Source: Pseudobutyrivibrio ruminis AD2017 (GTDB lineage Bacteria > Bacillota > Clostridia > Lachnospirales > Lachnospiraceae). Taken from it: 64,000 nt of DNA. The stretch lies in the NCBI RefSeq assembly GCF_000424305.1, contig NZ_KE384162.1:1-64000 (forward strand). The letters run 5' to 3'. The position numbers were made by a program, and so were the translations under genes. The notes beneath the pieces were generated by a model. The model saw only the letters and a program-made list of their open reading frames with translations. It did no database searches and was not told the origin of the DNA. Within the stretch, counting starts at the first letter, position 1; the number at the start of each line of letters is the position of its first letter. Positions 2,358 to 12,309 of the stretch are shown one piece after another.

Positions 2358-2432
2358 ATGACTAGAATATTATTCGTTTGCCATGGCTTGGTACTAACTT
2401 GTAGTCTAAAAGCCCATGAAATCAACGGTTAA
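2358..2432 (+). pseudogene. 5' stub of a low-molecular-weight protein tyrosine phosphatase gene (left junction)
   Basis: An AGGGAG ribosome site precedes an ATG whose product starts MTRILFVCHG, the hallmark opening of the low-molecular-weight phosphatase family up to the catalytic Cys. The frame then turns into 14 unrelated residues and a stop. The break falls at TGCCATGGCT (2379-2388). The same ten bases recur at the same codons of the intact phosphatase gene at 11878-11887. I infer that this is the original host 5' end, cut off by insertion of the 9.5-kb element. Confidence 0.75.
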
Positions 2433-2450
2433 TGTTGCTTGAGAGATAGA

Positions 2451-2469
2451 TTTACAACCTATTTACAAC
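2451..2469 (+). repeat. TTTACAAC boxes, candidate left Int arm sites
   Basis: Two TTTACAAC octamers (2451-2458, 2462-2469) are spaced 11 bp apart, about one helical turn, just inside the left junction. Three copies in the same orientation occur just inside the right junction after int. Such direct repeats at both ends fit the arm-type sites bound by Tn916-family integrase N-domains. Confidence 0.5.
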
Positions 2470-2496
2470 TTTTGGATAGCTGCGATACGATACGAT

Positions 2497-2523
2497 GAGT
2501 CCCCAAATTGGGGACTCTTATTT
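2497..2523 (+). terminator. Stem-loop near the element's left end
   Basis: A 10-bp perfect palindrome (2497-2506 with 2508-2517) is followed by TTATTTATA. It could end transcripts reading in from the chemoreceptor and phosphatase stub. Confidence 0.5.
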
Positions 2524-2546
2524 ATAAGAGTCCTTGACTAAGACAC

Positions 2547-2623
2547 AACAAACCCTTCGGGGTATGTCAAAAGAAGAGAAAATGATCTGTATTTTGACAT
2601 AACCTGCGGAGGGTTTGTTATTT
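2547..2623. repeat. Large imperfect hairpin
   Basis: Outer arms AACAAACCCT (2547-2556) and AGGGTTTGTT (2610-2619) enclose inner arms GGTATGTCAAAA (2561-2572) and TTTTGACATAACC (2592-2604), with a loop of about 19 nt. The whole 73-nt block can fold into one long stem. It ends with ATTTTG on the plus strand, so it may be a terminator or a small palindromic element. The 2337-2711 interval otherwise holds only the phosphatase stub and arm sites. Confidence 0.5.
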
Positions 2624-2711
2624 TGCAATTAAATTTTGAAAAATATAACTAATAGGAATAACTAAAATAGCTCGTGTCTGATATAATATTTTAATGAGTC
2701 TGGATTTTTAA

Positions 2712-3155
2712 GTGGAAAGATATGGACTGAAAATAGATACTTTCAGAATGGTGTTTAATATGTTGGAAAATATAGATGATGTATATTCTGGTGTAGATAA
2801 AAGATGGATTTATTCAAGCAAAGTGGATTGTGAACTTTTAAGTGATTATCTACAGAAAATCAATTTCAGTATTCAGGACTACAATTATAAGATTAACAGG
2901 ATAAATGATAGAGGAGATGTGTGCTATTTAATCTTGCTTGTGACATGGATACAAGAATCTTATAAGTTGATTCAAACTACTGTTAGGGAAGATGTAATGG
3001 CATCGTTTGAATATAAAGAGGAAAGCTTAGTATCTCAATGCAATAAGTATATTAGTGCTTTAAGATCATTTGTTGTGGGGGAACTTTTGGTCCAATGGAA
3101 CCAGAAGTGGATATATGGATACGCAGTACGAAATAGATTCTGGCGGGTGACATAG
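2712..3155 (+). CDS. Hypothetical protein, possibly C-terminally truncated
   Basis: This is a 147-residue soluble, helix-rich frame with a GTG start and no clear ribosome site; an internal ATG at codon 13 is an alternative. I do not recognise the family. The first 115 residues look like ordinary coding sequence of this genome. The last 30 (after about residue 118) turn Trp- and Arg-rich and atypical, suggesting a frameshift or truncation at the 3' end. It is the first gene inside the integrative element and is followed by non-coding, possibly decayed DNA. Confidence 0.45.
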   Translation: MERYGLKIDTFRMVFNMLENIDDVYSGVDKRWIYSSKVDCELLSDYLQKINFSIQDYNYKINRINDRGDVCYLILLVTWIQESYKLIQTTVREDVMASFEYKEESLVSQCNKYISALRSFVVGELLVQWNQKWIYGYAVRNRFWRVT

Positions 3156-3570
3156 GAGCACGGATTTTTGCATAAAGGAATTGTGTACCTTTATGCGTAT
3201 CCTGTTATATTTTTTATTTTTGCTTGTAAAGATGACTGCGGAATAGTCGTAAAACGCAGTGGATATGCGGAAGCCTTTATTTACAAGGGATTCAGAGTCC
3301 GACATTGTTGTTAAAGTGATTATCAGTCCGATATATCCGAAGTTGCATAATTTACTTGCGCCAACGGTTGGTTCGGATATGCCGTAATCGACGTTAACAT
3401 GTTGCAAACATTGATTTTATGCGGTTTGTAGCATTTGATGGTCGAAGTGGTGAGTTTCAGGTGGTCAGGGTGATGAGCCAATCGCGAAGGGGTGTGACAT
3501 AGGCTGGTTCACATAGCTGATCGGCTCCGCAGAGTGGTTGCGTGTAGCCTCAAGAAAAGGCTTAAAATCA
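3156..3570. other. Intergenic stretch with no recognisable gene
   Basis: No convincing gene is visible on either strand; the 113-residue minus-strand frame at 3066-3407 has no ribosome site and no family resemblance. The stretch holds a 9-bp hairpin (3170-3178 with 3188-3196) shortly before a T-rich tract, and an ATATCCGAA/TTCGGATAT inverted repeat near 3340-3380. It is probably decayed cargo of the element. Confidence 0.5.
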
Positions 3571-3599
3571 ATGACTATCAGGGTCCGGTATTGTATAAT
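3571..3599 (+). promoter_or_regulatory. Candidate promoter of the TfoX-like gene
   Basis: ATGACT (3571-3576), a 17-bp spacer and TATAAT (3594-3599) make a plausible sigma-A promoter. It would start transcription roughly 14 nt before the GAGGTG ribosome site of the next gene. Confidence 0.45.
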
Positions 3600-3619
3600 C
3601 ATTGGTAGAGGTGATTGTT

Positions 3620-3934
3620 ATGGCGTCAAGCAAGGAATATTTGGATTTTATATTAGAACAGCTTTCTGAATTGGATGATATATCGTATAGAGCAATGATG
3701 GGCGAGTACATCATCTATTATCGTGGCAAGATTGTCGGTGGAATATATGATGATCGTTTTCTCGTGAAGAATGTGAAAGCTGCGTCAGAATTGATGCCGG
3801 ATGCATCATTGGAACTTCCATATGAGGGCGCAAAGGAAATGTTTCTGGTAGATGATATTGATAATAAGAGTTTCTTGAAGGAATTGTTGGAAGCTATGTA
3901 TGAGGAACTGCCGGAGCCGAAGAAAAAGAAATAA
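3620..3934 (+). CDS. TfoX N-terminal domain protein
   Basis: This is a 104-residue protein with the single TfoX_N fold, seen in the MMGEYIIYYRGKIVGGIYDDRF core and a Lys-rich C-terminal tail. Stand-alone TfoX_N proteins are common accessory genes in Firmicutes and lack the C-terminal half of the Haemophilus competence regulator TfoX/Sxy, so a competence role should not be assumed. The ATG at 3620 is preferred because GAGGTG (3608-3613) sits 6 nt upstream. It lies in the cargo part of the element and is followed by a degenerate copy of the recurrent AAATCG spacer motif (3958). Confidence 0.75.
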   Translation: MASSKEYLDFILEQLSELDDISYRAMMGEYIIYYRGKIVGGIYDDRFLVKNVKAASELMPDASLELPYEGAKEMFLVDDIDNKSFLKELLEAMYEELPEPKKKK

Positions 3935-3970
3935 CTTTTTATATAACTGAGTAAGATAAATCGTAATTGA

Positions 3971-4411
3971 ACGAAGCATAAGAGGAACTTCATACTTCTT
4001 ATCTGCACACTGTGTATTTTAGCCAGTGTTATTTTTTGCGTGGAAAAAAGTGCAATCGAAAGCGTAAATGCATGCCATGACAGGATATCAACATCTAAGC
4101 AGATACCGTTATCATCTGCAAATGCTTCATTAACCACGCTTCGTCCGATACTCAATTATCTGACTGTACCTGAGGTAAAGAATCTTGGTGCTGCCTGCAG
4201 TATCATTGAAAATCATTATAAGAATGCCGAGCAGCGTATAAGCCTGGCATTTCTATTCTTTTTATTCGTTGTATCACTTCTGATATCGATACACCTTTTT
4301 CCTGTTTACCTGTTTGACAGGGTCAATGTGGCTTTTTATCAGAAAGCCATAATCCGGTTTATCCACAGCAAGGATATGGAGGTTCGTGAGAATCTCGGCA
4401 ATGTAAAATAA
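3971..4411 (+). pseudogene. Remnant of a two-TM membrane protein
   Basis: The frame is open from just after a TGA at 3968-3970 with no good start codon; the first usable one is a GTG at 4040. The product would have a hydrophobic segment (encoded about 3985-4040), an extracytoplasmic stretch of about 70 residues, a second TM (encoded about 4235-4300) and a short tail. That topology resembles the sensor part of a signalling protein that has lost its output domain. Its stop codon lies inside the long hairpin at 4397-4460. I do not recognise the family; truncation at both ends is likely. Confidence 0.4.
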
Positions 4412-4466
4412 AGTGCGTAAGTTGATGGTTTCCAACTTACACACTTTATTTTACATTGCCCTTTTC
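4397..4466. terminator. 28-bp bidirectional terminator hairpin
   Basis: Arms at 4397-4424 and 4433-4460 match at 27 of 28 positions around an 8-nt loop, followed by a pyrimidine-rich tract. It lies between a plus-strand remnant and the minus-strand lysR gene, so it can terminate both. The left arm includes the last codons of the remnant. The stem is longer than most intrinsic terminators. Confidence 0.75.
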
Positions 4467-4478
4467 TTTAGATTTTTA

Positions 4479-5366
4479 TTAGGATTTATAACGTTTTAAG
4501 TCTGCACATATTTTTTCGATTTCGTCGGAAAAAACACTGTTTTCTGACCAAAGAAAGGTGAAGTCATGTTGTATTGAAAAGTTATTAAGAGGTATCTTTT
4601 TTAAGCTTCCTTGCTGCAGTTCACGTTCAACAGCAGCTTTATAAAGAAAGCTTATTCCGCAGTCATTTAAGAGAAACTGAATTATGGTATGCATGTTTTC
4701 AACCTGAGTATAGTGGGTAAAACATTCAATTTCGTGATTGTTAATTGCTAAAGAGCGCTCTAAAATGTTTCTGGTTCCTGAACCGGGTTCTCGTACAAGG
4801 AGTCTTTCTGAAAAAAGATCAGAGAGTTGATTTGGCTTTTTTTTAAATATATGCGATGCGGCGCATACAGGTATAAATTCTTCAGTGCGATAGAGCATTG
4901 TATTATAAATTCCTTCTGGAAAATATCCTTCAACCAGCGCGAAATCAATATTTCCGTCTTTAAGATTATTTAAAAGTTCAGTTGTATTTCCAAAATGAAT
5001 TACGAAGTCTGTTTCAGGATGATCTTTGATATAACAGCTAACAGGATATGATATGGCGTATTCACCGATTGTCATAGTTACGCCAAATGATATTTTTTTA
5101 TTAGCTGTATTTGATAATGATAGTTCTCTTTTTAGTATAGCTTCGTCATTTCTTATTTGATTCATCTTCTCAAAAAGCAGTCGACCACTATCTGTTAGTT
5201 CGAGCTTTTTTCCATCTTTTATGAAAAGTTTAGTGTTATATACTTTTTCAAGATAGTGAATATGCTGCGATACAGCTGGCTGTGTTATATTAAGCTCATT
5301 TGCTGCATGAGTATAGTTCATGTTTCTGCATACACATAAAAAAGTGTCAATTCTGAAATCAAGCAT
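4479..5366 (-). CDS. LysR-family regulator of the divergent YeiH exporter
   Basis: This is a 295-residue LysR-type regulator. Residues 1-60 form the winged HTH, with recognition helix around TQPAVSQHIHYLE. A linker helix and a periplasmic-binding-like effector domain (about 90-290) follow, resembling the CysL/YeiE branch. The divergent arrangement with a YeiH-type gene is a recurring one in bacteria, so this is very probably its activator, responding to a small anion or sulfur metabolite (inference). A CATAA-N7-TTATG dyad lies in the shared promoter. The pair may be cargo of the integrative element. Confidence 0.9.
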   Translation of the reverse strand: MLDFRIDTFLCVCRNMNYTHAANELNITQPAVSQHIHYLEKVYNTKLFIKDGKKLELTDSGRLLFEKMNQIRNDEAILKRELSLSNTANKKISFGVTMTIGEYAISYPVSCYIKDHPETDFVIHFGNTTELLNNLKDGNIDFALVEGYFPEGIYNTMLYRTEEFIPVCAASHIFKKKPNQLSDLFSERLLVREPGSGTRNILERSLAINNHEIECFTHYTQVENMHTIIQFLLNDCGISFLYKAAVERELQQGSLKKIPLNNFSIQHDFTFLWSENSVFSDEIEKICADLKRYKS

Positions 5367-5381
5367 GATATTCTCCTGTAA

Positions 5382-5448
5382 CCATAAAGAAAATTTATGG
5401 ATATATTATAATATATAATTTTTGTTTTAGCAAAATGTTTATTATAAT
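5382..5448. promoter_or_regulatory. LysR box and yeiH promoter
   Basis: CCATAAA (5382-5388) and TTTATGG (5394-5400) are perfect 7-bp arms with a 5-bp centre, containing the T-N11-A pattern of LysR-type sites. A good -10 TATAAT follows at 5443-5448 with a poor -35, as expected for an activator-dependent promoter driving the plus-strand transporter. Confidence 0.6.
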
Positions 5449-5477
5449 GGCTTTTGTTGAATAGGAGGATATAGAAG

Positions 5478-6515
5478 ATGAAATCTATAATGAAAAAAAC
5501 AAAAGGTATGCTGATATGCTTATTAATAGCGCTTCCTTCGTGGATGATAGGAAAAAGATTTCCTGTAATTGGAGGTGCTGTAATTGCAATTGTTTCAGGA
5601 ATGCTAATTTCACTTTTTTGGAATGATAAGAAGGATGCAGAAGAAGGAATAAAGTATACTTCTAAAGTGATTTTGCAGACTGCTGTTGTGCTTCTTGGGT
5701 TTGGTATGAATCTTTCTGTGGTGATGGAAACTGGAAAACAGTCACTGCCAATAATTATTTGTACTATATCTACATCACTTATTCTTGCATGGTTACTTCA
5801 TAAGGTGATGAAAATAAAAGGTAATATTTCAACGCTTATTGGGGTAGGCTCTTCTATATGTGGTGGTTCTGCAATAGCAGCAACTGCACCGGTTATAGAC
5901 GCAGATGATGACGATGTTGCTCAGGCAATCTCTGTAATCTTTTTCTTTAATGTACTGGCAGCTATATTATTTCCTGTGCTTGGAAAAATACTTGGTTTTA
6001 GTATAAGTTCAGGCGAGGCTTTTGGAATTTTTGCAGGAACTGCAATTAACGATACTTCATCAGTTACTGCGGCTGCCTCAACATGGGACAGTATGTGGAA
6101 TTTGGGAAGTCAAACTTTGGATAAGGCAGTAACAGTTAAGCTTACCAGAACACTTGCGATAATACCTATTACACTTATACTTGCCTTTTTGAGAGCCAAA
6201 GAAGCTAGAAAAGACGGAAGTCATACGAATGGTTTTAGTTTAAAAAGAGCATTTCCAATGTTTATCATTTATTTTATATTGGCATCAGTAATTACTACGG
6301 TATCTCTAAGTTGCGGGGTATCGCCAGATGTTTTTTCTCCATTGAAAGAACTTAGCAAATTTCTAATCGTAATGTCGATGGCAGCAATAGGGCTAAATAG
6401 TAATGTGATAAAGCTTATTAAGTCTGGTGGGAAACCTATATTGCTTGGAGGTTGCTGTTGGGCAGGAATAACAGTGGTTAGCTTGTTAATGCAGCGAGTT
6501 ATGGGAATTTGGTAA
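5478..6515 (+). CDS. YeiH-family putative sulfate exporter
   Basis: This is a 345-residue polytopic membrane protein of the UPF0324/YeiH family (about ten hydrophobic segments). Family signatures are the [14 protein letters not shown] motif in the middle and the Asp-rich DADDDD that follows it. Members are annotated as putative sulfate exporters, but substrates are poorly established. GGAGGA precedes the ATG. It is divergently paired with a LysR regulator, the usual yeiE-yeiH-like context. The length is normal and the frame intact, in contrast to the degraded genes on both sides. Confidence 0.88.
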
Positions 6516-6946
6516 AAATGCAACTTCAAAACCTTCCTTTTGATGCATGGTTCGTAATAAGATTTATGATGCTTTTTGCAATAAACCTTTGTTTTTTTAT
6601 TTTTTTTTGATAGAATGATAAATCTCAAGTCTAGAAGCAAAAGTGGCTCAATCCTAGATGATGTCTGGGATTGAGCCTTTTCGTCTGTATAGCGAACTAA
6701 CAGTTATTCTTGTATGACATAGATTTTTTCAGACGCTTCCAAGAAGCAACATTAGATGAAAGAAGGAAAGGGTATCCTTTATGTGGTTGATATCTCGCTC
6801 TACGGTAGTTTTCTAGAAAATTGGAATGTTTTACGTTGGATAGAAAAAGCGCATCGTCGATTATATCCGAATATAAATGAGTACGACAATTTCGGTTTGT
6901 AAAGACGAAAAGTATTGGAAAAAAACAGATATAAAGTTGCCACCAG
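6516..6946. other. Intergenic stretch with gene debris
   Basis: No intact gene is visible. Apart from the terminator at 6645-6681, short coding-like fragments on the plus strand (about 6714-6767 and 6789-6901) sit in different frames and are broken by stops. They could be the missing upstream part of the acetyltransferase remnant or of another lost gene. I cannot identify them. Confidence 0.4.
6645..6682 (+). terminator. Rho-independent terminator
   Basis: GGCTCAATCC (6645-6654) pairs with GGATTGAGCC (6668-6677) around a 13-nt loop and is followed by TTTTC. It lies downstream of the YeiH gene. Confidence 0.7.
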
Positions 6947-7234
6947 TTGTGTACAGTAGTCCTGAGCTTTCTACCGTACACAACAGGTAAACAGCAACTA
7001 GATGAAGAAATGCCTCAAATACGGCATTTTTACTTCATTAATCGTTCTCAAGGAGAAAAGATAGGTAGTAAATTATTAAGTTTTGCAACCTCAGACAAAG
7101 GAGCAAAATGGCTTTGGGTTTTAGAACAAAATGAGCGAGGCATTAAGTTTTATAAGAAGAATGGATTTGATTTTACGGGGGAGAGGATGATAGAGGACGA
7201 CTGGATTCCATTAAAGAAAATGTTAATTAATTAA
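6947..7234 (+). pseudogene. GNAT acetyltransferase remnant, C-terminal part
   Basis: From about residue 35 the frame carries the second half of a GNAT fold: the acetyl-CoA loop SQGEKIGSKLL, a strand/helix with NERGIKFYKKNGF (the usual N-x-x-A/G-x-x-F-Y-x-K-x-G-F motif) and a normal C-terminus. The N-terminal substrate-binding half is absent, and the first 30 residues look non-native. It is most likely a 5'-truncated gene. It is followed directly by an 18-nt palindrome (7250-7267) of the recurrent spacer type. Confidence 0.65.
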
Positions 7235-7421
7235 CTTCAGATTAAATGAGACAAATTCCAATTTGTCGGGATGTGGCATAGCCTTTTATATCGCAATATA
7301 AATGATAAAGACAGCTTCATGTTTGCTAGAGTGAATAATTGAATATGTAGCTTTGGGGTAAATGGACCAAAGGCGGTGAATGAAGTCGAGAGCAATCTCG
7401 GCTTTATTTTTTTGCGCAAAT

Positions 7422-7762
7422 TTTAGTAATCAGTACCAACTCGTTCCAAATAGTAGATGTAAGGACAAAAAGTTGGCTTTTGTTTTAGCAACCAAGATAA
7501 AAAGGTACCAAATGAAAGATGAAAGCAGAAATTTTTTTCTTTAATTTTTGGAAATCAAACATCTGGCAACCCAAGTATATGGTGAAGCAATGAGGAAGGA
7601 AAAAAATTTTTCAAAAAAATATTGTCTTCGTTTAGTAATAGGGGGTCAACCCAACCCAAATGTATAGTGAGGGAAAAAATAAGCCAGTTTTTGAAACTAT
7701 TTTTTTCGGCATTTAGTAATCAGTCATTTTTGAACATAAATGCATTGTGAGAGGAAAAAGCT
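7422..7762 (+). repeat. Five-unit iteron-like array, candidate origin
   Basis: Five degenerate direct repeats start at 7422, 7484, 7547, 7631 and 7712 (pitches 62, 63, 84 and 81 bp). Each has an A-core like TTTAGTAATCAGT and, 26 or 27 bp later, a B-core like CCAAATGTATNGTGAGRGG ending in an A-rich run (B-cores at 7448, 7510, 7573, 7658 and 7738). The constant A-to-B offset shows they are one composite unit. The array lies directly upstream of the replication-type genes, as initiator-binding iterons do. It fills the 7235-7856 gap, where no gene is seen. Confidence 0.7.
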
Positions 7763-7856
7763 TTTTTTAGCCTCGGGGCAGACGTGCCCACAACTAGTAA
7801 CAATTGATACCAATTCAGTTGACTGCAGCAATGGCGATTGGGGAAAGGATACTTTT

Positions 7857-8825
7857 ATGGATTTAGTAAACATTGATGAAACATTAAAAAACATAGGGAC
7901 TTACTGGGAAGTATATTGCTTTATAGCCGAAGAGGACCGCACCTTGGATGAAATCAAAAGGTTTTTGATGACGGAGTGCGATAAACCGGAATCGACAGCA
8001 CGAGCACAGGTGTCTGCCTTTAAATCAGCACGGGACAATATTTATGAGTTTTGTGAAGATGGTGAGCATGTATGTATCAGTGTGGACAAGATGAATCGTT
8101 TGGAAGAGCAGATGGATGATTTTCTTGGCTTTACCAAGTACGACTATCGTGCAGTGGATCATCGCGACTATGAAGATGCATTTAATGAGGCGGCAGAAGA
8201 ATGGAAAAAGAATCGAGAGGAATTAACCAATCGCATCAACAAACTCAACAAGGCTGCATGGAATTGTCAAATGGAAAGCTATAAGAAGCAGATTGAATAT
8301 TTAAAAAAGCTTTTGGAACAACCGGTGTTGGTAACTAATGATACTTTCACAGTTGATAGCCAGAAGTATTATGCTAAGGATTTTTCTTTTTATTCGAACA
8401 GACAAGAGATGGAAGACAGGGAATTAAACTGGATTGCATCAAAGCATCGAGTTGAAGTCTCTGCTGAAAAAGATGAGTGGGAAGAAGTTACTAATCTTTT
8501 TAAGAACAAGAGGGTAAAACTGAAGGATAGAATTCTTTTGTTTCCGCTTTGTATGTTAGCTCGCTGGAAGAAACGGAAATATGAGAAGATAGCGAATTCC
8601 ATTATCTATGATGACATAGTAAAGCGATTTGCCAGAGAAATGGTGGAGCAGAAGATATTTATCATTGCTGATTTCAACGGTAAGAAGGAACCATTTAAGA
8701 TCGTTCCGCAGCGTTATTTGGATGACTTAAGAAAACGGGTAGATGACCTTGAAAAACAAATTGAATCCACTTGTGGTCCATTGGACCATAAGCCGGAAAA
8801 TGAGCCTACAGGAAAGGAGGCGTAG
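7857..8825 (+). CDS. Hypothetical protein of the element's replication module
   Basis: This is a 322-residue soluble, highly charged, helix-rich protein. The N-terminal third contains a small folded region around TLDEIKRFLMTECDKPES. A coiled coil spans about 120-165, a basic segment rich in Lys/Arg about 230-265, and another predicted coiled coil lies near the end. I do not recognise a named family. The ATG at 7857 (GGGAAAGG upstream) is preferred over an ATG at 7740, because that upstream stretch aligns with the last unit of the iteron array and so is probably not coding. It is immediately upstream of the initiator-like gene and probably co-transcribed. Confidence 0.7.
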   Translation: MDLVNIDETLKNIGTYWEVYCFIAEEDRTLDEIKRFLMTECDKPESTARAQVSAFKSARDNIYEFCEDGEHVCISVDKMNRLEEQMDDFLGFTKYDYRAVDHRDYEDAFNEAAEEWKKNREELTNRINKLNKAAWNCQMESYKKQIEYLKKLLEQPVLVTNDTFTVDSQKYYAKDFSFYSNRQEMEDRELNWIASKHRVEVSAEKDEWEEVTNLFKNKRVKLKDRILLFPLCMLARWKKRKYEKIANSIIYDDIVKRFAREMVEQKIFIIADFNGKKEPFKIVPQRYLDDLRKRVDDLEKQIESTCGPLDHKPENEPTGKEA

Positions 8826-8828
8826 TTG

Positions 8829-9344
8829 ATGGAGAATCGATATTTACGGAAAGATGACAAATTGAATAACTTCATACCGATTCCGCTTTCTTTGCTGGAT
8901 TCAAAACTCAGTAGCACCACATTGCTTGTATATGGCTGTCTCCTTGGACGTGGCATCTTATCCCAGAAGAATGGCTGGTATGACCAGAATGGGGCTATAT
9001 ACGTCCGTTATACGGCGCCTCAGCTTGCCAGGGATTTGGGCAAGGGTAAATCCACAGTAAAGGCTTCTTTAAAGGAATTAGAGACTGCGGGTCTGATAGA
9101 GAGAAGGCGTATGGGACTTACTATGACAAATATTTATATCAAGGTTCCATGCTCATCTGAAAGCGGTCAGTATTCTGACCACGCAGGACAGAAATCTGAC
9201 CTGCCTAAGCCGGAAAACAAGACTTACAGCGGTCAGAATTCAAGCCCATCCGAGGTCAGAAAACCGGACCCAAGTAAATATAACAGAATAAATAATGGAA
9301 CATACCATAAAGAATATATCGTGAGAGAGGGGGAGAGCTTTTGA
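8829..9344 (+). CDS. RepA-N-type replication initiator-like protein
   Basis: This is a 171-residue protein with the N-terminal winged-helix domain of RepA_N initiators. The family pattern is visible as F-IPIPLSLLD, LLVYGCLLGRGILSQKNGW, a Tyr-rich turn, then a second helix-turn-helix ending in an LIERRRMGL wing. The C-terminal 55 residues are polar and probably flexible. A perfect AAAGGAGG lies 8 nt before the ATG at 8829; the preceding TTG is not needed. Such proteins sit in plasmids and integrative elements and bind iterons, consistent with the repeat array upstream. It overlaps the next gene. Confidence 0.8.
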   Translation: MENRYLRKDDKLNNFIPIPLSLLDSKLSSTTLLVYGCLLGRGILSQKNGWYDQNGAIYVRYTAPQLARDLGKGKSTVKASLKELETAGLIERRRMGLTMTNIYIKVPCSSESGQYSDHAGQKSDLPKPENKTYSGQNSSPSEVRKPDPSKYNRINNGTYHKEYIVREGESF

Positions 9345-10147
9345 TGAAGAATCAGGATTTAGAAAATGAAACTTATGTTGGCGAAGATGGATTGCTTTAT
9401 TGCGCTAAGTGCCACACACCTTGCGAAAAGGCTCTCCCACATCCTTTGGAGAAGGGGAAGCTCTGGAGAGTTCATGTAATGTGTCGATGCCAGCGTGAGG
9501 CCTATGAAAAGGAGCAGGCCGAACGTGCTAAGCGTGAGTTTGATGAGATGGTAGAGCGTAACCGTATGGTTTGTTTTCACGAAAAGCAGATGTATGCCAT
9601 GACCTTTGAGTCTGATGATGGCAGTGTGCCGGCCATGAAAAAAGCCAAAGCTTATGTAAACCATTGGGATGAGGTAAAGGCTAAGAACGTCGGCTTATTA
9701 CTCTATGGCGACGTTGGTACAGGTAAAACCTATATAGCGGCGGCAATAGCAAATGCACTTCTTGATCAAGGTAAGAGAGTTTTGATGCGTGACTTTACTG
9801 AGATAAGCAATATCTCTACTTTTGACTCGGATGAATATGTTCGCTCGTTATCTGCTTATGATTTATTGGTTTTGGATGATTTGGGAGCGGAGCGTACCAC
9901 AGAATTTGCGATGCAGAATGTATTTAATGTAGTCAATCGCAGGATGGAGTCCGGAAAGCCACTCATCGTCACGACAAATAAGTCTATGGATGATTTGAAG
10001 AATCCTAAGGAACTTACAGATAAGCGTATTTATGATCGCATCCTTGCCATGTGCACGCCGGTCTTTGTCGGTGGTAATAGCAAGCGAGAAAAGATTGCAT
10101 CCGATCATTATCAGAATTTAAAAGATATTTTTGGAAAGGAGGAATAG
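9344..10147 (+). CDS. DnaC/IstB-type AAA+ helicase loader
   Basis: This 267-residue AAA+ ATPase starts with a Cys-rich N-terminus (CAKC near the start and CRC about 30 residues later) resembling the zinc-binding end of some Firmicute helicase loaders. The ATPase core has Walker A GDVGTGKT (about residue 122), Walker B LLVLDDLGAE, and a sensor I segment PLIVTTNKS. In elements of this type it loads the replicative helicase DnaB onto the origin opened by the initiator. The ATG at 9344 overlaps the stop of the initiator gene. With the previous two genes it forms a replication operon. Confidence 0.85.
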   Translation: MKNQDLENETYVGEDGLLYCAKCHTPCEKALPHPLEKGKLWRVHVMCRCQREAYEKEQAERAKREFDEMVERNRMVCFHEKQMYAMTFESDDGSVPAMKKAKAYVNHWDEVKAKNVGLLLYGDVGTGKTYIAAAIANALLDQGKRVLMRDFTEISNISTFDSDEYVRSLSAYDLLVLDDLGAERTTEFAMQNVFNVVNRRMESGKPLIVTTNKSMDDLKNPKELTDKRIYDRILAMCTPVFVGGNSKREKIASDHYQNLKDIFGKEE

Positions 10148-10150
10148 TTT

Positions 10151-10366
10151 ATGGCTGAATTACAAACTTATAGTGGCGTTCCTCTTTGGAAGAAATATTC
10201 CTTAAACATTCAGGAAGCTGCAGAATACTACGGAATTGGCGAAAAACGACTCAGACAGATTATTTCTGAAAATCGTGACGCAGCATTTGTTCTTGAGGTG
10301 GGAAGTCATACCAGAATTAAGAGGGAATTGTTTGAAAAATACTTGGATGAATCGACTGTGGTTTGA
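10151..10366 (+). CDS. xis: Tn916-type excisionase
   Basis: This is a 71-residue, basic, winged-helix excisionase of the Tn916 Xis family. The N-terminal part SLNIQEAAEYYGIGEKRLRQII is the helix-turn-helix and the C-terminal ...RIKRELFEKYLD is the typical ending. Xis bends the element ends and steers integrase toward excision. It follows the helicase loader by 3 nt with a strong AAAGGAGG site and precedes int, the standard order in this family. Confidence 0.9.
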   Translation: MAELQTYSGVPLWKKYSLNIQEAAEYYGIGEKRLRQIISENRDAAFVLEVGSHTRIKRELFEKYLDESTVV

Positions 10367-10415
10367 GTGAGTTTTGAATGCAATTAGTGATGGTTGAAAA
10401 CTATAACTTATAGAG

Positions 10416-10466
10416 AAAAAGCCGCGTTTATGGTATGATAGGGCATATCGTATCGTGGCTTTTTTC
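10416..10466 (+). terminator. Hairpin between xis and int
   Basis: AAAAAGCCGCG (10416-10426) pairs with CGTGGCTTTTT (10454-10464), one pair being G-T, around a 27-nt loop that can fold further. It ends in a T-run on the plus strand. It would terminate or attenuate read-through from the replication/xis operon into int, and so could set the Int-to-Xis ratio (inference). Confidence 0.65.
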
Positions 10467-10494
10467 AGAAGTTATGTCGTAGAAAGGAGACGTA

Positions 10495-11691
10495 ATGAGT
10501 GAAAAAAGACGAGATAATAAAAATCGCGTACTTCGTAATGGAGAAAGCCAACGAAAAGATGGAAGATATATGTACAAATACAACAATGAAAATGGTGAAG
10601 CAAAGTACTTTTACAGTTGGAGACTGGATAAGAATGACCCGACACCGGTAGGAAAGAAGCGTGAGTTATCTTTACGAGAAAAGATTAGGAAAATGGAAGA
10701 AGATAAGCTTGCAGGACTTCTTCCCGGGGCAAGTAATACAACAGTCCTTGAACTCGTTGAGAAGTATGTTTCTTTGAAAACCGGAGTAAGGCATAATACG
10801 GAAGCAAATTATCGATTTGTAATCAATATTATTAAAAAGGAACCGTTTGGGAAGATGCGTATCGATCGGGTGAAACAATCGGACGCGAAGGCATGGCTTA
10901 TCAAACTCCAAAAGGATGGCCGTGGTTATAGCACTATTCATACGGTGCGTGGTGTTGTAAGACCAGCATTTCAAATGGCGACAGATGATGATTTGATAAG
11001 AAAGAATCCGTTTGAGTTCCAATTAGCAACTGTAGTTGTAAATGATAGTGTTACCAGAGAAGCTATTTCCAGAGCAGATATGCGTAAGTTCCTTAAGTTT
11101 GTTGAAGAGGATAAGCATTTTAGCAGATACTATGAAGGGTTTTATATTCTCTTTCATACGGGACTTAGAATATCTGAGTTTGTTGGACTTACGATAAATG
11201 ATATTGATTTTCGTGAAATGAAGATTCATGTCACACATCAGCTTCAGCGAAAGCGAAATATGGAATATATCATTGAAGATACCAAGACTTCCAGTGGTAC
11301 CAGAGATATTCCGATGACTTCCGAAGTGGCAGAGTGTTTTCGTAGGATTATTGACAAGAGACCGAAAGCAAAAGTTGAGCCGATGATAGATGGCTATAGT
11401 GGTTTTTTGTATCTTGATAAAAATGAAAAGCCTATGGTTGCTCTACATTGGGAGAAATATTTTCAGCACGTTGTAGAGAAGTATAATGGCATTTATAAAA
11501 TTCAGATGCCTAAGATTACACCGCATGTGTGCCGCCATACATTCTGTTCAAACATGGCAAAGTCGGGAATGAATCCGAAAACTCTTCAATACATAATGGG
11601 ACATTCGGATATAGGAGTTACGTTAAATACATATACGCATTTAACGTTTGACGATGCAAAGGAAGAGATGGAAAGATTAGCAAAGGCATAA
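10495..11691 (+). CDS. int: Tn916-family tyrosine integrase
   Basis: This is a 398-residue tyrosine recombinase of normal length. The N-terminal 70 residues are the arm-binding domain of Tn916-like integrases, followed by a SAM-like core-binding domain (about 80-165) and the catalytic domain. The catalytic set is complete: Arg225, Lys264, His344, Arg347, His370 and nucleophile Tyr380. AAAGGAG precedes the ATG. It sits 187 bp from the right core repeat with three TTTACAAC boxes between, which places its att site at the phosphatase gene. Tn916 itself prefers AT-rich, loosely defined targets; here the gene-specific position suggests a more selective integrase (inference). Confidence 0.95.
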   Translation: MSEKRRDNKNRVLRNGESQRKDGRYMYKYNNENGEAKYFYSWRLDKNDPTPVGKKRELSLREKIRKMEEDKLAGLLPGASNTTVLELVEKYVSLKTGVRHNTEANYRFVINIIKKEPFGKMRIDRVKQSDAKAWLIKLQKDGRGYSTIHTVRGVVRPAFQMATDDDLIRKNPFEFQLATVVVNDSVTREAISRADMRKFLKFVEEDKHFSRYYEGFYILFHTGLRISEFVGLTINDIDFREMKIHVTHQLQRKRNMEYIIEDTKTSSGTRDIPMTSEVAECFRRIIDKRPKAKVEPMIDGYSGFLYLDKNEKPMVALHWEKYFQHVVEKYNGIYKIQMPKITPHVCRHTFCSNMAKSGMNPKTLQYIMGHSDIGVTLNTYTHLTFDDAKEEMERLAKA

Positions 11692-11717
11692 TAATAGCGA
11701 GTTGTAAGAAACTCAGA

Positions 11718-11758
11718 TTTACAACTATTTTTACAACTTTTGATGGCAATTTTACAAC
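11718..11758 (+). repeat. TTTACAAC boxes, candidate right Int arm sites
   Basis: Three TTTACAAC octamers (11718-11725, 11730-11737, 11751-11758), 12 and 21 bp apart, lie between int and the right core. The spacing is close to one and two helical turns. Two identical boxes lie at the left end of the element. Confidence 0.55.
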
Positions 11759-11856
11759 AAATTATGCAAAGATATGCCATAAAACGGCAGGAAAGAATCT
11801 GTCACTGAATTGCCTTAAAGCCTGTAAAATAGCGAAAATATAAGGAATTAAAGACT

Positions 11857-12309
11857 ATGATAAATATACTTTTCATCTGCCATGGCTCAATCTGTCGCTC
11901 ACCAATGGCTAAATATGTAATGCAGGATATGGTAGATAAAAGAGGCATAGCTAAGGAGTTTTTTATCGATTGCGCTGCTATGACCTATGAGGAGATTGGA
12001 AATCCGGTTTATCCACCTGTTAGACAGCTTTTAAATGACAAAGGAATAGATTGCAGTGGCTATGGTGCACGCCATATCAGAAAAGATGAATATAGAGATT
12101 TTGACTATATCATAGGTATGGATGCAGAAAACATGCGTGACCTTCATTATGAATTTGGTGAGGATAGGGATAATAAGATATACAGGCTGTTAGATTTCAC
12201 TGATAGACCACGTGATATAGACGACCCTTGGTACACTAGAAAGTTTGATGTATGTTATGAGGATGTATTAAGAGGCTGTGAAGGCCTTCTAAAGGAATTA
12301 GGATACTAA
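11857..12309 (+). CDS. Low-molecular-weight protein tyrosine phosphatase (chimeric 5' end)
   Basis: This is a 150-residue cytoplasmic phosphatase with the P-loop C8-HGSIC-R14 followed by SPMAKYV, and the acid-loop DDPWY near residue 122. It hydrolyses phosphotyrosine or similar phosphomonoesters. The body from Gly10 on appears to be the host gene. The first ten codons, upstream of the TGCCATGGCT core at 11878, appear to come from the element, because a second, different set of ten codons ends in the same core at 2388. The element thus supplies a new start, and the enzyme should still be made. An AAGGA site lies 10 nt before the ATG. Confidence 0.92.
   Translation: MINILFICHGSICRSPMAKYVMQDMVDKRGIAKEFFIDCAAMTYEEIGNPVYPPVRQLLNDKGIDCSGYGARHIRKDEYRDFDYIIGMDAENMRDLHYEFGEDRDNKIYRLLDFTDRPRDIDDPWYTRKFDVCYEDVLRGCEGLLKELGY

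What the first reader, a model, noticed from the sequence alone, without database searches (positions are those of the whole stretch)
2358..12309. Integrative element that splits a tyrosine phosphatase gene and supplies a replacement 5' end
Both junctions encode a phosphatase opening ending in CHG at the same ten bases (TGCCATGGCT at 2379 and 11878). Left: host-like start, then nonsense after 14 codons. Right: a different start joined to an intact body. The element thus swaps the first ten codons and keeps the enzyme working but under a new start and promoter region. This parallels SXT in prfC, but I know of no described element using this phosphatase gene.
Basis: partly seen in the sequence, partly recalled or inferred. 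Interest (0 to 1): 0.75.

Follow-up and report, generated by a model that had tools for sequence, protein, structure and literature searches.

The report
Mobile element re-heads a phosphatase gene
A small mobile DNA element inserts at the catalytic-loop codons of a bacterial phosphatase gene and gives the gene a new start, and many related elements in Clostridia do the same.

Summary
A 9,499-bp element lies between two copies of TGCCATGGCT (2379, 11878) in the first codons of a low-molecular-weight tyrosine phosphatase (LMW-PTP) gene. The left copy is the displaced host start; the right joins an element-borne start to the intact body. Congeners G011 (filled) and G019 (empty) confirm this. Lachnospiraceae bacterium AC2012 carries the same element (6 mismatches in 9,361 columns) in a PTP gene only 48% identical in protein. 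It recurs: of 79 integrase loci kept by a capped scan, 67 run into a PTP body and all 79 end in PTP start codons. On the tree these need one change of target, though one member (L062) is placed without support. The 58 sampled lack the Arg and Tyr aligned with Tn1549 R153/Y160, but so do 15 of 17 outgroup rows. The start cassette is exchangeable: it differs between the two near-identical elements, the break lying at the integrase arm repeats. New 5' ends are known from SXT/prfC and dusA islands. Eight full-text searches (some lists capped) showed nobody describing this target. New variant of a known kind.

The parts
2358..2388 (+). displaced host 5' end of the LMW-PTP gene (MTRILFVCHG), attL; frame runs on to TAA 2430-2432
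   Evidence: same logic in the empty/filled pair
2379..2388 (+). left copy of the core TGCCATGGCT (Cys-His-Gly codons plus one base)
2389..11877 (+). element body; 2389-11748 is 99.9% identical to the copy in AC2012
2451..2469 (+). left repeats TTTACAAC at 2451 and 2462 (probable integrase arm sites)
2712..3155 (+). ORF, no family match
3602..3934 (+). TfoX N-terminal-domain protein (cargo)
4479..5366 (-). LysR-type regulator (cargo)
5478..6515 (+). Cons_hypoth698 membrane protein; YeiH-type by a match below the curated NCBIfam cut-off (cargo)
6947..7234 (+). short GNAT acetyltransferase ORF, probably truncated
7740..8825 (+). 361-aa ORF, no family match
8826..9344 (+). RepA_N-type replication initiator
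9341..10147 (+). DnaC/IstB-like AAA+ protein (helicase-loader-like)
10151..10366 (+). Tn916-type excisionase
   Evidence: PF09035, E 4.5e-30
10495..11691 (+). Tn916-type tyrosine integrase of the PTP-specific group
11718..11758 (+). right repeats TTTACAAC at 11718, 11730, 11751; breakpoint of the right-end exchange
11749..11877 (+). start cassette carried by the element: leader, Shine-Dalgarno-like AAGGA, start codon and codons 2-7
11857..12309 (+). hybrid LMW-PTP gene, 150 aa: element-supplied start, host body
11878..11887 (+). right copy of the core TGCCATGGCT, attR

Best explanation
It is a small integrative element whose Tn916-type integrase recombines site-specifically at the codons for the catalytic loop (Cys-His-Gly) of chromosomal LMW-PTP genes. 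The attP site of the circle would be [leader, ribosome-binding site, start codon and codons 2-7 of a PTP] - 7-bp overlap - [element left end]. Integration displaces the host's own start to the left and puts the element's start in frame on the host body, so the enzyme stays whole but has another 5' region. Shown: junctions, an empty site, the same element in another host gene, the recurrent target, open frames. Inferred: excision and integration activity, expression from the element's leader, and selection on the element to keep the host gene working. Inferred with less certainty: homologous recombination between arm repeats exchanges the start cassette and makes gene-less mini-elements.
For: Empty/filled pair G019/G011. 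Near-identical element (6 mismatches, 2 gap openings in 9,361 columns) in PTP genes 48% identical in protein, with no blastn match at E 1e-5 between the flanks. 67 of the 79 integrase loci kept by a capped scan run in frame into a PTP body; in 10 of the other 12 the PTP start is followed by other DNA (8 with an arm pair, seen by eye), and in 2 (L105, L137) the start codons join other sequence. In an order-wide sample I fetched 33 loci covering 35 of 52 match rows: 6 of 6 complete integrases of 58-70% identity precede a PTP, 0 of 26 others do, 1 ends with its contig (a seventh, G050, was seen). One change of target on the tree; the 57-row node has SH-aLRT 96. ATG or TTG start in 74 of 76 right ends, pN/pS 0.18 over element-supplied codons 2-7, 61 unique sequences. 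Outermost cores share the 7-bp overlap in 8 of 10 loci. Near-identical right ends in different hosts first differ at the third base of the His codon in L069/L157 and L093/L096; over 12 such pairs mismatches rise from 0.09 per base before Cys to 0.35 in the body.
Against: No excised circle or expression data. The window element has no relaxase match, so its route between cells is unknown. No sigma-70-like promoter on the + strand of the right end. No empty-site strain of the window's own species was available, and the chemoreceptor neighbour is not conserved. Two of 10 outer core pairs differ in the overlap (L122 one base, L031 two), and 5 of the 8 matches are the common CACGGCA, so agreement there is weak evidence. 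The tree branch that brings L062 to the rest of the PTP group has almost no support (SH-aLRT 2). pN/pS read in frame +1 is also below 1 (0.35), so part of the conservation may be integrase binding.
Confidence: 0.92

Rival explanations
1. Ordinary promiscuous Tn916/Tn1549-like insertion that happens to lie in a PTP gene, the flanking similarity being a coupling-sequence effect.
For: Integrase and excisionase are of the Tn916 type, and Tn1549 Int accepts varied 5-7 nt crossovers (PMC5871717, passages).
Against: 67 of 79 related loci sit at the same codons of the same gene family and all 79 carry the PTP start.
Confidence: 0.03
2. The body gene at 11857 is native with its own start, and the short left reading frame is a chance or pseudogene fragment unrelated to insertion.
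For: The left repeat is 31 nt long and 74% identical, and one search lists unrelated pairs as good.
Against: In G011/G019 the left remnant is exactly the empty-site gene start and the DNA between is an integrase element. AC2012 shows the same left boundary with another host start.
Confidence: 0.02
3. Site-specific element as in the best explanation, but the different right ends of the window and AC2012 copies arose by ordinary recombination or replacement, not by arm-to-arm exchange with a resident relic.
For: Right ends of the family look homologous to each other, so a crossover anywhere there could swap them. The direct match between left and right ends exceeds the best of 100 shuffles in only 4 of 11 loci.
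Against: Near-identity breaks off at the third arm repeat, 11748-11751. L067, L130 and L155 show an element followed by a gene-less mini-element with the same arm type, the intermediate that arm-to-arm deletion would use.
Confidence: 0.35

Closest known systems
dusA-specific genomic islands (PMC4482086 and PMC8409611; passages read)
   Same: [quoted passage not shown] the frame is restored; the islands recur in many hosts.
   Different: Other integrases and another gene. Here a Tn916-type integrase, hosts in Clostridia, crossover at catalytic-loop codons, about 7 codons supplied (that paper compares the first 35 residues).
SXT in prfC (as stated in PMC8409611; original not read)
   Same: [quoted passage not shown]
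   Different: A self-transmissible element with an unrelated target. The window element has no relaxase match.
Streptococcal ICEs in the 5' end of rbgA, ebfC, ftsK (PMC4701971; passages)
   Same: Some change the sequence upstream of the target gene, promoter included.
   Different: Other targets; 'phosphatase' does not occur in that main text.
Tn916/Tn1549 integrase family (PMC5871717, passages; PDB 6emy matched at E 8.1e-85; that 6emy is Tn1549 Int is recalled)
   Same: Tn916 N-terminal DNA-binding domain, catalytic domain, Tn916-type Xis; arm repeats.
   Different: One target gene, while the paper says that Tn916-like transposons insert into diverse sites; R153 aligns with Gly and Y160 with Gln/Glu/Lys/Arg in 58 of 58.
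Integrative and mobilizable elements (review PMC5704250; passages)
   Same: Size and modular content; relatives at this site carry a MobA/VirD2-type (L035) or MobA/MobL (L107) relaxase.
   Different: 'phosphatase' does not occur in that main text. The window element itself has no relaxase match.

Membership tests
Site-specific integrative element with 5'-end replacement (SXT/dusA kind) | Empty site shows an uninterrupted target gene; filled site shows a remnant start and a new start | tested here: met
   G019/G011, (congeners with a related element, not the window's own species)
Site-specific integrative element with 5'-end replacement (SXT/dusA kind) | Same target in many hosts | tested here: met
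   67 of 79 loci; 10 of 40 fetched PTP loci have an integrase within 500 bp upstream
Site-specific integrative element with 5'-end replacement (SXT/dusA kind) | Target gene is expressed from the element's promoter | not testable with these tools
   No RNA data; no sigma-70-like site on the + strand
Tn916-type integrase family | Integrase_DNA (PF02920) plus Phage_integrase (PF00589), Tn916-type Xis | tested here: met
Tn916-type integrase family | R153/Y160 base-flipping residues, reported as strongly conserved in Tn916-like elements | tested here: not met
   Gly and Gln/Glu/Lys/Arg in 58 of 58, but 15 of 17 outgroup rows lack them too; an invariant Arg sits at 152 and might substitute
Tn916-type integrase family | Insertion into diverse genomic sites | tested here: not met
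Integrative and mobilizable element (IME) | Own integrase | tested here: met
Integrative and mobilizable element (IME) | Relaxase or oriT for mobilization | tested here: inconclusive
   No relaxase match in the window element; oriT not tested; relaxases in relatives L035 and L107
LMW protein tyrosine phosphatase | PF01451 and the C-X5-R catalytic loop | tested here: met
   PF01451; CHGSICRS; best solved match YfkJ 4etm. That C-X5-R is the catalytic loop is recalled.

The most novel reading that the evidence does not exclude
A group of Tn916-type integrases exchanged promiscuity for one target, the catalytic-loop codons of LMW-PTP genes, perhaps with loss of the base-flipping residues. Its elements (IMEs of several backbones, defence-like cargo, gene-less minis of 150-170 bp) share an exchangeable 'start cassette'. 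Arm-to-arm recombination at tandem insertions swaps that cassette, so that leaders and first codons of a chromosomal phosphatase are shuffled between genera of Clostridia.
Probability: 0.45. Interest if true: 0.68.

Novelty: new variant of a known kind. Interest (0 to 1): 0.57.

Why it matters
It names a widespread insertion site in Clostridia, at codons that are conserved because they encode a catalytic loop, and so gives an exact way to delimit many elements. The pair of near-identical elements in two distant hosts is a natural experiment on the crossover point. The group offers a test of what makes Tn916-type integrases promiscuous or specific, and candidate site-specific integrases for gut anaerobes. 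It also means that the 5' region of a chromosomal phosphatase is repeatedly replaced by mobile DNA.

Tried and rejected
Chemoreceptor-phosphatase synteny as the empty site: no DNA match spans both in 28 congeners. Chemoreceptor-type matches exist in G001 and G007; in G001 it is followed by other sequence, in G007 I did not look.

A profile of the 70 bp before the start, to find scars of lost elements upstream of unoccupied PTP genes: poor separation (L059 22.1, L031 16.2, L070 12.5 bits; best of 3,000 random segments 16.2). Not used, although L059 looks like a scar.

Sigma-70 promoter scan of both ends: nothing on the + strand.

Exceptions: L105 runs into an IS3-like transposase (named by eye), L137 into other coding sequence; a secondary site, an IS insertion or a deletion cannot be told apart. 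L114 and L123 are unclear: I saw no arm pair by eye.

Arm repeats, control: the longest direct match between left and right ends is 9-13 nt, shuffled means 7.3-8.7. It exceeds the best of 100 shuffles in 4 of 11 loci (L040, L079, L118, L122), equals it in 5 (window, L031, L088, L107, L117; in L031 the match is not the arms) and is below in L035 and L055. The arms are therefore read mainly from the repeated octamers; in the window 5 of the 6 forward TTTACAAC in 64 kb lie at the two ends.

Rows dropped: L049 is a chance match (SLG); inner cores of L040, L067, L130, L155 (CWG against CHG) were not counted as outer pairs; L117 was not assessed there. L053 and L067 were left out of the 76 right ends. 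The tree took every second locus of the 79 plus all 12 exceptions, 8 loci, and fetched outgroups, rows over 330 aa only (75 rows, quick method). One search used 40 of the 85 non-own match rows, the best by E-value.

Papers: eight searches ran. I saw titles and abstract starts only; searches list 20 of 26, 24, 227 and 622 papers. Passages were read from PMC4701971, PMC12884075, PMC5704250, PMC4482086, PMC6907783, PMC10763512, PMC12904643, PMC8409611 and PMC5871717; no paper was read whole.
Full report
Observation. The core TGCCATGGCT occurs at 2379 and 11878, within a 31-nt imperfect repeat. The left copy follows ATG 2358 and encodes MTRILFVCHG, after which the frame runs through 14 codons of element sequence to a stop. 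The right copy follows ATG 11857 and encodes MINILFICHG, in frame with a complete LMW-PTP of 150 aa (PF01451; best solved match YfkJ). One search lists unrelated repeats of equal length and identity, so the repeat alone proves nothing. Between the copies lie cargo (TfoX_N, LysR, a Cons_hypoth698 membrane protein, a short GNAT), a RepA_N initiator, a DnaC-like ATPase, a Tn916-type excisionase and a Tn916-type integrase, whose stop is 165 bp before the right start. ARAGORN finds no tRNA gene in the window.

Empty site. I searched 99 genomes, the own one included, with the phosphatase (78 have a match, many weak) and fetched the 40 best other loci of 85 with up to 17 kb upstream. Congeners G011 and G019 form a filled/empty pair: G011 matches G019 (93-95%, one small indel) up to the tenth codon of the phosphatase gene, then carries 8.3 kb with Xis and Int, then matches again (86%) from the phosphatase start. 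The left remnant in G011 equals the start of the uninterrupted G019 gene over ten codons, while the start now used in G011 differs. The uninterrupted reading MTRILFVCHGSICRSP is found in G006, G018 and G025, without the chemoreceptor gene in front.

The same element elsewhere. The genome scan returned Lachnospiraceae bacterium AC2012 (JNIN01000002.1) with the same element: 6 mismatches and 2 gap openings in 9,361 columns. Its host gene is a PTP with 48% protein identity to ours, whereas the 21 good congener hits are 81-93% identical, and blastn at E 1e-5 finds no match between the flanks. So one element entered two distant hosts recently, at the same codons. On the left, identity starts at the base after the core. 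On the right it stops at 11748-11751, in the third arm repeat; from there to the Cys codon 96 of 138 aligned columns are identical (22 gap columns, five of them from my cut). The start cassette of one copy was therefore replaced. Upstream of the displaced AC2012 start lies sequence like another element's right end (profile score 15.4 bits, below the best random 16.2), so that start may itself be second-hand (inference).

One target. Of the 79 loci kept by the capped scan of 84,980 genomes, 67 run directly and in frame into a PTP body. The other 12 also end in PTP start codons. In ten of these the start is followed by other DNA; in eight I see by eye a pair of arm repeats as in the left end of another element, i.e. 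tandem insertions; L114 and L123 are unclear. In L105 and L137 the start is joined to other sequence. Record titles give 42 Lachnospiraceae, 11 Oscillospiraceae, 2 Clostridiaceae, 2 Eubacteriaceae, 1 Christensenellaceae and 21 resolved less far. In an order-wide sample of 117 genomes, 34 have a match at E 1e-20, 52 rows; I fetched 33 loci covering 35 rows. Six complete integrases of 58-70% identity precede a PTP start; one of 57% ends with its contig; 26 others do not, among them four C-terminal pieces of 49-79% identity over 53-124 residues, and a few with under 450 bp downstream. On a tree of 75 integrases the 58 with PTP starts need one change of label. The node that holds 57 of them has SH-aLRT 96. 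L062 (51% identity, PTP) and L165 (51%, not PTP) sit next to it; the branch that would put L062 with the 57 has support 2.

Crossover. Outermost left and right cores share the 7-bp overlap in 8 of 10 loci: CATGGCT (window), CATGGTT (L035), TGGGGCA (L055) and CACGGCA (L040, L079, L088, L107, L118). L122 differs by one base; L031, with integrase remnants only, by two. As CACGGCA is the common form, the first three carry the weight. Among 12 pairs of nearly identical right ends, L069/L157 and L093/L096 first differ at the third base of the His codon; in most other pairs a few differences occur earlier too. The rate is 0.09 per base in the 27 nt before Cys and 0.35 in the body. So codons 1-7 come with the element; the overlap varies between hosts of near-identical elements. 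Tn1549 integrase accepts different crossover sequences (PMC5871717, passages).

Integrase features. The paper reports R153 and Y160 as needed for base flipping and strongly conserved in Tn916-like elements. I mapped them on the 6emy chain by the offset that puts Arg and Tyr at these numbers. All 58 PTP-start integrases have Gly at 153 and Gln (50), Glu (3), Lys (3) or Arg (2) at 160. Of the 17 other rows only L166 and L167, close outgroups, keep Arg and Tyr. So the loss is not a marker of the PTP group, and an invariant Arg152 could take over the role.

Start cassette and minis. Right ends share an A-rich leader with an AAGGA-like ribosome-binding site and a start (by eye). The start codon is ATG in 73 and TTG in 1 of 76; codons 2-7 have pN/pS 0.18 over 61 unique sequences, against 0.35 and 9.7 in the shifted frames. 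Arm repeats lie about 60-90 bp inside the left core and 100-160 bp before the right start, in the same orientation; their octamer differs by element (TTTACAAC, TTTATACC, TTTACTAC, TTTACCAA, TTTACCAT, read by eye; shuffle control in Tried and rejected). Four loci hold gene-less units of about 150-170 bp between two cores with one arm pair (L040, L067, L130, L155), whose arms look like those of the neighbouring element. Deletion between left and right arms would make them; a second such event between an element and a neighbouring mini would swap its start cassette, which fits the window/AC2012 pair. This step is inference.

Mobility. The window element has no relaxase match. Relatives at the site carry a MobA/VirD2-type relaxase (L035), a MobA/MobL relaxase (L107), a Mob_Pre match below the curated cut-off (L040), an HerA/FtsK-like ATPase (L118), a Rep of the Viral_Rep family (L117), and in L055 a TOTE-primase/helicase protein with only an integrase remnant (remnant read by eye). 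So the att module is shared by several backbones.

What is known. Replacement of a gene's 5' end with a new promoter is described for SXT in prfC and for dusA islands (PMC8409611, PMC4482086, passages), and changed upstream sequence for some streptococcal ICEs (PMC4701971). Eight searches of the held library showed no element in an LMW-PTP gene in what they listed. Verdict: real, well supported, new variant of a known kind.

Noticed in passing
L055 (G032:C7), about 5 kb upstream of its PTP: A PTP-site insertion with only an integrase remnant carries a TOTE-conflict primase/helicase/PLD protein and a second large ORF that I did not scan: defence-like cargo at the same codons.
   Followed up: partly
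L117, -2772 to -1684 from the PTP start: A PTP-site element encodes a Rep of the Viral_Rep (PF02407) family; the layout of L118 and L122 looks similar by eye, though the L118 ORF in that place had no Pfam match.
   Followed up: partly
L067, L130, L155 (just upstream of PTP) and L040 (about 8 kb upstream): Gene-less mini-elements of about 150-170 bp with two cores and one arm pair, arms like those of the neighbouring integrase element.
   Followed up: partly
L079, 1650-1890; left flank of L117: The displaced starts may themselves be older right ends: TTTATACC-type arms in L079; the L117 left flank scores 22.7 bits with the right-end profile. Layered insertions at one gene.
   Followed up: partly
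window 2451-2469 and 11718-11758; L035, L088, L107, L122: The arm-repeat octamer changes from element to element while its position stays, suggesting co-evolution with the integrase N-terminal domain.
   Followed up: no
window 4397-4460: A 28-bp, 96% complementary hairpin between a 123-aa ORF and the LysR gene, probably a terminator.
   Followed up: no
window 11775-11789, - strand: One terminator-like site just before the start cassette, 0.1 expected from shuffles.
   Followed up: no
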